A stretch of 64,000 bases of DNA. Source: Microthyrium microscopicum. Lineage: Eukaryota > Ascomycota > Dothideomycetes > Microthyriales > Microthyriaceae. Where the stretch lies: positions 1,962,539 through 2,026,538 of the forward strand of contig MU004233.1 of the NCBI GenBank assembly GCA_010405405.1, in the 5' to 3' direction. The notes beneath the pieces were generated by a model, which was given only the letters and a program-made list of their open reading frames with translations, had not been told where the DNA came from and ran no database searches. This document shows positions 13,370 through 14,568 of this stretch, piece after piece (within the stretch, counting starts at the first letter, position 1; the number at the start of each line of letters is the position of its first letter). The position numbers and the translations under genes were made by a program.

Positions 13370-14368
13370 GACGGAAGATAGTTCTATGTTGCTTTCACTA
13401 TGGAGCCAATCAGTACATGATATTTACTTTCTAGAATGTCTTACAGACCTCGCTTTGTCTTATGCTATCTCGAGAACAAGTGGTTGTCCGTTACTAACAA
13501 CAGTTATAGAGCAAGTTAGTTGAGGGAAGCTGCGAAAATTGGACAAAACCACGAATAAATACACGGTCAAGCGTTCGGCAATGCTAACGTAGGGTACCAG
13601 TGATTGAAAGTGAGTCCTTGAGGAAAACAAAGTTTCGTGTTAGCTCAGGGGTACTGCATTACCATATATCATCTTCGATTCTTCTCAGTGATGCCGTAGC
13701 TCTGCATGCTCTGTATGCTGAAGAAGTCTCTTGGAGATTGATCTGTCTGAAAAGTCAACATCAGTTACGTTGGAAGCTTAAATCAAAGACCAGTTACATA
13801 TATTGGGTGGTCATATTTACTTGATGGTAACAAATTCGTCAATTGTCTGGTACCTAGTTGGCCTAGCTTGAATGGCTAAAATATCTATAACACCTAGAGC
13901 TCGTCCAAAAGACCTGGGCCAGTTGTTTTGGCAGCTCTATCCTTTTTACACTGTTTCAAAATCTTCATTCAATATTCAGCAGTGAGCCGGCTCAAAGTTG
14001 ATAGACACGAACCACGAAGTCGAGGAGTCAAGAATCCTGCATTCATCGGAATTGCACTATGCAACCTAACACGGATTACGCTACTCTACGTGATAGGAAA
14101 CCAAAGGTGGCATTGCAAAAAAGCTTTACATTATCAAAAGTAACAGCCAATGCTTGGAAGATTGGGACATGAATTTCTTTATTAGATGCCTAATAGTATG
14201 AGAAATGACTTAACTGTACTGCATGATTTGTGCTGATAGAACTGTATGAGATCAATCGTCAACAGGGGATGGAGAGATAGTAAACAAGAAAAGTAAGGAG
14301 AACTGCATTTACCTCAGTCGTTATGCGATATATACGAATTTTTGGGAATTTGTGCTCATTCAATATCC
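13370..14368. other. Intergenic region upstream of the membrane-protein gene
   Basis: This is a 1-kb stretch of ordinary composition holding the 5' region of the PTH11-like gene and the upstream side of the tRNA gene. Small open frames at 13161-13523 and 13600-13824 are shadows or chance. Nothing else is seen. Confidence 0.5.
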
Positions 14369-14490
14369 GCCTTGCTAGCTCAATCGGTAGAGCGTGAGAG
14401 TAAGCTAACTCGTTCCGTTCCAACACAACAAATCTAACCAGCTCATCAGCTCTTAATCTCAAGGTTGTGGGTTCGACCCCCACGTAGGGC
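14369..14490 (+). tRNA. tRNA-Lys (anticodon CTT) with a 50-nt insertion at 14400-14449
   Basis: The two parts 14369-14399 (31 nt) and 14450-14490 (41 nt) join into a 72-nt tRNA. It has a pairable acceptor stem (GCCTTGC with GTAGGGC, one G-U and one U-G pair), a D arm (A box TAGCTCAATCGG), anticodon stem TGAGA/TCTCA with loop CTCTTAA, and T arm with B box GGTTCGACCCC. The body is that of fungal tRNA-Lys(CTT). The insertion falls between nucleotides 31 and 32, at the end of the 5' anticodon-stem strand. Eukaryotic tRNA introns normally sit after nucleotide 37. The insertion begins GTAAG, contains CTAAC and ends CATCAG, so it looks like a small spliceosomal intron. The junction is unique, since sliding it by one base breaks the tRNA. 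The gene may be functional with an unusual intron, a disrupted copy, or the head of a SINE. Confidence 0.82.
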
Positions 14491-14497
14491 TGTCAAC

Positions 14498-14560: not shown

Positions 14561-14568
14561 TTTTTTTT
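14561..14568 (+). terminator. Likely RNA polymerase III terminator (T8)
   Basis: This is the first run of four or more T residues downstream of the tRNA, about 70 nt after its end. The trailer is long for a tRNA and contains both hairpins. Confidence 0.6.

What the first reader, a model, noticed from the sequence alone, without database searches (positions are those of the whole stretch)
14369..14490. tRNA-Lys(CTT) split by a spliceosome-like 50-nt insertion at position 31/32
Seen: removing exactly 14400-14449 restores a complete tRNA-Lys with an intact CTCTTAA loop. The removed piece has GTAAG, CTAAC and CATCAG, the marks of a fungal pre-mRNA intron, and the junction cannot slide. Known: eukaryotic nuclear tRNA introns sit between 37 and 38 and are cut by the tRNA endonuclease. 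Inference: either a tRNA intron at an ectopic site, possibly removed by the spliceosome, or a tRNA copy interrupted by a mobile intron.
Basis: partly seen in the sequence, partly recalled or inferred. Interest (0 to 1): 0.75.

Follow-up and report, generated by a model that had tools for sequence, protein, structure and literature searches.

The report
Spliceosome-type introns inside fungal tRNA genes
In the fungus Microthyrium microscopicum a lysine tRNA gene, and at least eleven other tRNA genes, are interrupted by insertions of about 50 bases that carry the motifs of messenger-RNA introns and that the spliceosome likely removes, whereas tRNA introns are normally cut by a different enzyme.

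Summary
Deleting 14400-14449 gives the best tRNA of 3,541 distinct deletion products. The insert starts GTAAGC, has CTAAC with its A 12 nt from the end, and ends CAG; the junction cannot slide. The genome is Microthyrium microscopicum (Dothideomycetes), by a 100% protein match on a contig of the same length. In it I found 19 such inserts (18 distinct; 46-56 nt; GT-AG; branch-like motif 8-15 nt from the end) in 12 of 35 complete tRNA genes and in two incomplete ones, none at 37/38; 9 of the 12 also have a normal 37/38 intron. U6 snRNA has one too; 5S rRNA does not. Length and motifs resemble the fungus's mRNA introns; none forms a strict bulge-helix-bulge (0 of 18). The 12 genes keep T-run terminators. 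Best reading: spliceosomal introns in Pol III tRNA genes. No RNA data were available, so splicing is inferred. Listings from my searches of an open-access library showed no earlier report for tRNA.

The parts
14369..14399 (+). tRNA-Lys(CTT) 5' exon, positions 1-31 (acceptor 5' strand, D arm, 5' strand of anticodon stem)
   Evidence: sequence
14400..14449 (+). 50-nt spliceosome-type insert between positions 31 and 32, GTAAGC..CATCAG
   Evidence: best of 3,541 deletion products; single junction register
14400..14405 (+). 5' splice-site-like GTAAGC
   Evidence: donor types of protein-coding-like introns
14434..14438 (+). branch-point-like CTAAC, A at 14437, 12 nt from the 3' end of the insert
14447..14449 (+). 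3' splice-site-like CAG
14450..14491 (+). tRNA-Lys(CTT) 3' exon, positions 32-73 (CTCTTAA loop, 3' strand of anticodon stem, variable region, T arm, acceptor 3' strand, discriminator T)
14376..14387 (+). A box (TAGCTCAATCGG), intact
   Evidence: sequence; D-arm pattern; A-box consensus recalled
14470..14480 (+). B box (GGTTCGACCCC), intact
   Evidence: B-box consensus recalled
14329..14334 (+). upstream TATA-like element starting 40 nt before the gene
   Evidence: TATA at -50..-28 in 7 of 13 insert-bearing genes (U6 included), 9 of 23 others (L061 included), 13.6% of random sites
14561..14568 (+). run of eight T, candidate Pol III terminator, 70 nt downstream

Best explanation
The 50-nt insert at 14400-14449 splits a tRNA-Lys(CTT) gene of the fungus Microthyrium microscopicum between positions 31 and 32 and has the donor, branch-point and acceptor motifs of this fungus's mRNA introns, so it is likely a spliceosomal intron that the spliceosome would remove from the pre-tRNA. 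It is one of 19 such inserts found in 14 tRNA loci of this genome (12 complete genes), beside one in U6. Inferred course: Pol III transcribes the gene from upstream and internal elements; U1 and U2 recognise GTAAG and CTAAC; the spliceosome joins the exons; the RNA folds to a cloverleaf; in genes that also have a 37/38 intron, the tRNA endonuclease and ligase then remove that one. Shown: sequence, restoration of tRNA structure, motifs, recurrence, shared sites, T-run terminators. Inferred: Pol III transcription, spliceosome use, order of steps, and that the tRNA is used.
For:: the GT-AG deletion is the top tRNA among 3,541 products; all 19 inserts are 46-56 nt, GT..AG, with YTRAY 8-15 nt from the end; 15 of 18 distinct ones have CTAAC 7-15 nt from the end, against 0.63% by chance; with tRNA score as the only criterion, no product beat the GT-AG deletion in 9 of 18 scans, including inserts in the acceptor stem (Leu), T stem (Asp, Ala, Val) and D arm (Leu-CAA, Leu-TAG). 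Removing the 69/70 insert turns a G1-A72 mismatch into GGTGAGA:TCTCATC. U6 has GTACGT..TACTAAC..CCTAG; protein-coding-like introns of this genome have the same common donors, a branch A about 10 nt from the end and median 54 nt, and one intron fixed by an annotated protein fits; two Ser loci have an intron at the same variable-arm site, with a diverged body but the motifs kept; Leu-TAG, Leu-CAA and Pro-CGG share site 10/11; 12 of 12 complete insert-bearing tRNA genes have a T6+ run starting within 70 nt downstream (4% within 76 nt by chance); no insert has T6 or longer; no second Lys(CTT) gene found.
Against: No RNA evidence at all. In 8 of 18 scans (Thr, Gln, Pro, Leu-AAG #1, Ser #1 and #2, Asp #1, Ala #1) other deletions scored higher, and Arg(ACG) gave no call, so those junctions rest partly on the GT-AG motif itself. 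Four of 18 donors are off GTRNG (GTATTT, GTAATT, GTTCGC, GTTGCG). In five genes the insert splits the A box (10/11 in Leu-TAG, Leu-CAA, Pro-CGG; 15/16 in Asp; D loop in Gln), which should hurt Pol III. Inserts are not poor in short T runs: T4+ in 4 of 18 and T5 in 2 of 18, against 12.5% and 3.6% of protein-coding-like introns. U6 itself has only a T5 downstream of the match. Arg(ACG) lacks three bases of its 5' acceptor strand and the second Ser locus is only a 3' part, so some loci may be defective. The survey is incomplete; no gene was found for several anticodons, and an intron-free Lys(CTT) gene with an unusual B box could have been missed. The 56 protein-coding-like introns have a control count of 28, so about half may be chance, and the CDK7 intron read by eye has no perfect CTRAY.
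Confidence: 0.85

Rival explanations
1. The insert-bearing loci are broken tRNA copies; intact copies elsewhere feed the cell.
For: Arg(ACG) and the second Ser locus are incomplete, and five genes have a split A box. The genome was searched only by patterns and by tools that score a limited number of candidates. A review holds that insertions in D or T arms of other eukaryotes' tRNA genes are mostly pseudogenes (PMC4090602, passage read).
Against: No second Lys(CTT) gene was found (65 of 65 GGTTCGANYCC sites inspected). In the 12 complete genes the exons keep acceptor, anticodon and T stems, anticodons and T-run terminators, and 9 of 12 have a normal 37/38 intron (eight called by ARAGORN, Thr read by eye). 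Inserts can be drawn with GT-AG ends in every case, and a shared site keeps the motifs while the body diverges. U6, an essential gene, has the same kind of insert.
Confidence: 0.07
2. The inserts are ectopic tRNA-type introns cut by the tRNA splicing endonuclease at bulge-helix-bulge motifs, as in Cyanidioschyzon and cryptophyte nucleomorphs.
For: Ectopic and multiple tRNA introns are known in those algae (PMC3978253 and PMC4090602, passages read). Many genes here also carry 37/38 introns.
Against: A strict 4-bp central helix in 0 of 18 inserts; in any of nine registers 2 of 18 (Lys is one of the two), against 13.6% in random sequence. No such motif in the minimum-energy fold of the Lys precursor. 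GT-AG and a branch-point motif in all are not expected for this class.
Confidence: 0.04
3. The loci are made by Pol II as parts of longer transcripts, spliced as ordinary mRNA-type RNA, and the tRNA is cut out later.
For: Spliceosomes normally act on Pol II transcripts. The A box is split in five genes, the Lys terminator lies 70 nt downstream, and short T runs are not avoided in the inserts.
Against: T6+ runs close downstream in 12 of 12 complete tRNA genes, TATA-like elements at -29 to -40 in 7 of 12, no T6+ run inside any insert; U6 is a Pol III gene by established knowledge.
Confidence: 0.05
4. The inserts are recent copies of one mobile intron family (introner-like elements) that spread through the genome.
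For: Many inserts of nearly equal length, always with GT-AG ends.
Against: Bodies are no more alike than shuffled ones: best pair score 4.0, the highest shuffle maxima 6.0-7.5. The one identical pair (Leu-AAG and Leu-TAG, 69/70) lies in an 83-nt block shared with tRNA exon and flank, so it was copied with the gene. An older mobile origin, or reverse splicing, is not excluded and fits the best explanation as an origin.
Confidence: 0.06

Closest known systems
mRNA-type (spliceosomal) intron in the Pol III gene of U6 snRNA, as in fission yeast (PMC10484740, passages read; Tani and Ohshima 1989 and 1991 seen only as its references)
   Same: Short GT-AG intron with a branch-point motif inside a small structured Pol III RNA; one is present in this same genome.
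   Different: The host RNA here is tRNA, in many genes and at many sites; reverse splicing near the U6 catalytic nucleotides, the origin proposed for U6, does not simply explain the spread.
Spliceosomal introns in nuclear rDNA of lichen fungi and other ascomycetes (PMC8527467, passages read; Bhattacharya et al. 2000 seen only as a reference)
   Same: Ectopic spliceosomal introns in a structured non-coding RNA of Ascomycota, removed by the splicing machinery.
   Different: Pol I rRNA there, Pol III tRNA here; tRNA must keep internal promoter boxes and a cloverleaf, and has its own splicing enzyme.
Canonical nuclear tRNA introns at 37/38, cut by tRNA endonuclease (PMC4090602, PMC3978253, passages read)
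   Same: Intervening sequence in a nuclear tRNA gene; these introns are common in this genome too.
   Different: Here the inserts lie elsewhere, are about 50 nt long, have GT-AG ends and a branch-point motif, and no strict bulge-helix-bulge.
Ectopic, multiple and permuted tRNA introns of Cyanidioschyzon merolae and of Guillardia theta nucleomorphs (PMC3978253, PMC4090602, passages read)
   Same: Several introns per tRNA gene, in D, anticodon and T arms, in a large part of the tRNA set.
   Different: In C. merolae they are attributed to bulge-helix-bulge processing; in G. theta they are 3-24 nt and their removal is unexplained. None is described in the passages read as spliceosomal.

Membership tests
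U2-type spliceosomal intron | GT at the 5' end and AG at the 3' end | tested here: met
   19 of 19 inserts, with 1-5 equivalent junction registers each; the Lys insert has exactly one. Several junctions were found with the motif in mind, so only the Lys and the other 8 scans that the GT-AG product topped or tied are independent of it.
U2-type spliceosomal intron | Branch-point motif shortly before the 3' end | tested here: met
   YTRAY 7-15 nt from the end in 18 of 18 distinct inserts (chance 7.6%); CTAAC in 15 of 18 (chance 0.63%).
U2-type spliceosomal intron | Length and donor sequence like mRNA introns of the same organism | tested here: met
   tRNA inserts 46-56 nt, median 50; protein-coding-like introns median 54, with donors GTAAGT, GTATGT, GTACGT common to both sets (control count 28 of 56); one intron fixed by an annotated protein. 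Four of 18 donors are off GTRNG.
U2-type spliceosomal intron | Removal by the spliceosome with a lariat | not testable with these tools
   No RNA data are held.
tRNA-endonuclease (37/38) intron | Position between 37 and 38 | tested here: not met
   None of the 19 lies at 37/38 by my numbering of the exons.
tRNA-endonuclease (37/38) intron | Bulge-helix-bulge around the junctions | tested here: not met
   0 of 18 strict, 2 of 18 in any register, random 13.6%; none in the Lys precursor fold.
Group I or group II self-splicing intron | Conserved catalytic core of a few hundred nt | tested here: not met
   Inserts are 46-56 nt; no Rfam match in the window at gathering score (the other loci, L116 with U6 apart, were not scanned). 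Core size recalled.
Functional nuclear tRNA gene (Lys-CTT) | Complete cloverleaf, A and B boxes, T-run terminator | tested here: met
   terminator 70 nt downstream. Expression not testable here.
Introner-like mobile introns | Near-identical copies at many sites | tested here: not met
   No similarity above shuffles among the intron bodies compared; the genome's mRNA introns were not compared.

The most novel reading that the evidence does not exclude
Microthyrium microscopicum makes a large share of its cytosolic tRNAs with two splicing machines in series: the spliceosome removes GT-AG introns from Pol III pre-tRNAs (up to two per gene, even inside the acceptor stem and the A box), and the tRNA endonuclease removes the 37/38 introns. 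The spliceosome would then be essential for decoding itself, with tRNA-Lys(CTT) depending on it.
Probability: 0.78. Interest if true: 0.92.

Novelty: new variant of a known kind. Interest (0 to 1): 0.88.

Why it matters
The review passages read place nuclear tRNA introns at 37/38 and assign them to the tRNA endonuclease, with ectopic cases known from algae. A fungus with spliceosome-type introns in a third of the tRNA genes recovered would break that division of labour, would mean that common tRNA finders miss many of its genes (searches list none in the window), and would give a natural system for asking how spliceosomes act on Pol III transcripts, how Pol III copes with a split A box, and how introns spread into non-coding RNA. 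The claim is directly testable with one tRNA-seq library.

Tried and rejected
Reading as a canonical 37/38 intron: a loop beginning GTAAGC would give anticodon AAG (Leu) without a long variable arm, and the exhaustive deletion scan does not favour it. Bulge-helix-bulge: rejected. Mobile intron family: rejected on the inserts compared.

A typed mixture of 14 fungal-like tRNAs as a BLAST query found only the Pro(TGG) gene already known, so that tool is weak for diverged isotypes and its silence (too) proves little. The two D-arm patterns (99 hits) were not enriched over the backward control; of 67 hits fetched four were tRNA genes (Val-TAC, Val-AAC, a second His, Gly-GCC); the rest were already held or left unread. 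All 65 GGTTCGANYCC sites were read. One search listed only the first 100 of 198 GGTTCRANYCC sites; its listed GGTTCAANYCC sites, which end on C5, were read. The 27 hits (with a T run) were all read. GGTTCAANYCC sites beyond that without a T run, and other B-box types, were not.

Locus L061 (tRNA-like, 113-nt insert) did not resolve: no GT-AG pair with a branch motif, but a strongly structured sequence (z -3.55). A U6 hit under the cut-off (L117) was not studied.

Genes counted: 23 complete genes without such an insert (22 plus Gly-GCC) and 12 complete with one. Left out of both counts: Arg(ACG) with unresolved 5' end, the Ser 3' part, a second His with a poor acceptor (L190), L061, and the tRNA-like repeat family.

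Nothing on spliceosomal introns in tRNA was seen in the listings (open-access PMC only; titles, abstract starts and counts, with passages of some papers; subscription papers and preprints not covered). Passages of PMC13149111, PMC4494063 and PMC11782384 added nothing.

Full report
WHAT IS IN THE WINDOW. At 14369-14491 (+) lies a tRNA-Lys(CTT) gene split by 14400-14449. ARAGORN as run by the tool and Rfam at gathering cut-off list no tRNA in the window. I deleted every stretch of 20-89 nt inside the gene: 3,541 distinct products, 146 called tRNA with a 7-nt loop, and the best was the product of removing exactly 14400-14449 (119.2; runner-up 118.0; loci called in the DNA then held scored 100-120). 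The junction has a single register. The joined RNA has the cloverleaf as its minimum-energy fold (-24.7 kcal/mol); the unspliced RNA does not. The insert begins GTAAGC, has CTAAC with its A at 14437 (12 nt from the end) and ends CAG. No ORF of 150 aa or more covers the gene.

THE ORGANISM. The window is part of contig C4 of a 36.9-Mb, 20-contig genome. A protein of contig C2 (L036) is 100% identical to BT63DRAFT_450581 of Microthyrium microscopicum, on a contig of 4,495,203 bases, the length of C2; a relative of a window protein is likewise named for that species, on a contig with the length of C17. The species belongs to Dothideomycetes, Microthyriales.

THE SAME THING ELSEWHERE IN THE GENOME. 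I collected tRNA loci by Rfam tRNA model, B-box patterns and D-arm patterns, fetched them and read them with ARAGORN, a pairing script and by eye. Of 35 complete genes, 12 carry one or two GT-AG inserts outside 37/38 (17 inserts); two incomplete loci carry one each. One search lists them; positions are by my numbering: Lys(CTT) 31/32; Thr(AGT) 26/27; Leu(TAA) about 23/24; Leu(CAA), Leu(TAG) and Pro(CGG) 10/11; Gln(CTG) D loop; Val(TAC) 51/52; Leu(AAG) 30/31; Leu(AAG) and Leu(TAG) 69/70; Ser(GCT) 24/25 and variable arm; Asp(GTC) 15/16 and 50/51; Ala(AGC, with G3:U70) about 42/43 and 50/51; Arg(ACG) 32/33 (5' end unresolved); a second Ser locus of which only the 3' part was recognised, variable arm. 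Lengths are 46-56 nt. All 19 can be drawn with GT and AG; all have YTRAY with the A 8-15 nt from the end. Nine of the 12 complete genes also have an ordinary 37/38 intron (eight called by ARAGORN, Thr by eye).

HOW SOLID ARE THE JUNCTIONS. I repeated the deletion scan with tRNA score alone as judge (18 scans; in two-insert genes the other insert was first left out). In 9 no product beat the GT-AG deletion: Lys, Leu-TAA (27 ties), Leu-CAA, Val-TAC, Leu-AAG #2, Leu-TAG #1 and #2, Asp #2, Ala #2; some of these share the top with another deletion. In 8 others scored higher: Thr 15, Gln 25, Pro 123, Leu-AAG #1 37, Ser #1 167, Ser #2 117, Asp #1 13, Ala #1 218 (counts include both option runs). Arg was not called. 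So about half are supported by structure alone and the rest lean partly on the motif. In random intervals of this DNA, GT..AG occurs at 0.35%, YTRAY at that distance at 7.6% and CTAAC at 0.63%; observed 18 of 18, 18 of 18 and 15 of 18 distinct inserts. For Leu(AAG) and Leu(TAG), removing GTAAGC..AATTAG from the 3' acceptor strand turns a mismatched acceptor into GGTGAGA:TCTCATC.

COMPARISON WITH THE mRNA INTRONS OF THIS FUNGUS. In open-frame context the window gives 8 candidates against 2 in reversed sequence, such as GTACGT..GACTAAC..CTCAG of 50 nt. A wider set of 56 (reversed control 28) has median length 54, branch A 10 nt from the end, and GTAAGT, GTATGT and GTACGT among its commonest donors. 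An annotated protein fixes one intron as GTATGT..GCTAAC..ATTAG. The CDK7 gene appears to have GTAAGT..CAG, read by eye, without a perfect CTRAY. On the whole the tRNA inserts look the same.

OTHER Pol III GENES. U6 (L116, over Rfam's cut-off) carries GTACGT..ATACTAAC..CTCCTAG between ACAGAGAAGA and TTAGCATGG, the type known from fission yeast (PMC10484740, passages read). Seven 5S rRNA copies are 120 nt long with full model matches, so without insert.

ARE THE GENES ALIVE. All 12 complete insert-bearing tRNA genes have a run of six or more T starting within 70 nt downstream (chance 4% within 76 nt); U6 has T5 only. A TATA at -50 to -28 is present in 7 of 13 (U6 included) against 9 of 23 others (L061 included) and 13.6% of random sites, so it is shared, not special. 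No insert contains T6 or longer; two of 18 have T5 and four have T4 or more, which is no lower than in protein-coding-like introns (3.6% and 12.5%). Two Ser loci have introns at one variable-arm site with bodies that have diverged. Window ORFs of 300 codons or more use AAG 94 times and AAA 62 times, so AAG must be read often. Against: in five genes the insert splits the A box.

ALTERNATIVES. A strict bulge-helix-bulge is absent (0 of 18; 2 of 18 in any register, Lys among them, against 13.6% at random). Intron bodies are not alike. A second Lys(CTT) gene was not found, though these searches can miss genes.

LITERATURE. Reviews place nuclear tRNA introns at 37/38 and describe ectopic ones in algae and nucleomorphs, the former attributed to the tRNA endonuclease; one holds insertions in D or T arms of other eukaryotes to be mostly pseudogenes (PMC3978253, PMC4090602, passages read). 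Spliceosomal introns in rDNA of ascomycetes and in U6 are known (PMC8527467, PMC10484740, passages read). The listings of nine searches showed no report of spliceosomal introns in tRNA genes. A tenth, with the species name, was swamped by the word tRNA: none of the 8 papers listed holds the name, which says little. The library lacks most subscription papers.

VERDICT. A real and, as far as I could search, new occurrence: spliceosome-type introns spread through the tRNA genes of one fungus. The intron kind is known and the host RNA is the novelty. Splicing itself is inferred until RNA is read.

Noticed in passing
L061:294-479 (G000 C2): tRNA-like gene (acceptor GGCGGGT:ACCCGCC) with a 113-nt insert in the anticodon region; the whole is strongly structured (z -3.55) and has no GT-AG/branch-motif pair; isotype unresolved.
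   Followed up: partly
L024, L039, L042 and decayed copies L047-L049, L052, L053, L055, L057, L060: Dispersed tRNA-like repeat GGGGGAGTAGTACAGTGG..CTCCCCCACCA with an encoded CCA; several copies carry changes that look like RIP (C to T), not measured.
   Followed up: no
L012, L019, L081, L087, L091, L095, L110, L227: Conserved dispersed repeat with GGTTCRAGCCCCGTTTGCA..AAAATCAG..CTGATTTT hairpin, nature unknown.
   Followed up: no
L035 and L038: Leu(TAG) and Leu(AAG) genes share an identical 83-nt block covering the T arm, the 69/70 intron and the 3' flank, as from recent duplication or gene conversion.
   Followed up: partly
L109: Arg(ACG) gene lacks a recognisable match for the first three bases of its acceptor stem; a further intron near the 5' end, or decay, is possible.
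   Followed up: partly
whole genome G000: Few tRNA genes were recovered, mostly one per anticodon, and many have short 37/38 introns; no gene was recognised for Cys, Trp, Tyr, Lys(TTT), elongator Met and others, possibly hidden by further introns.
   Followed up: partly
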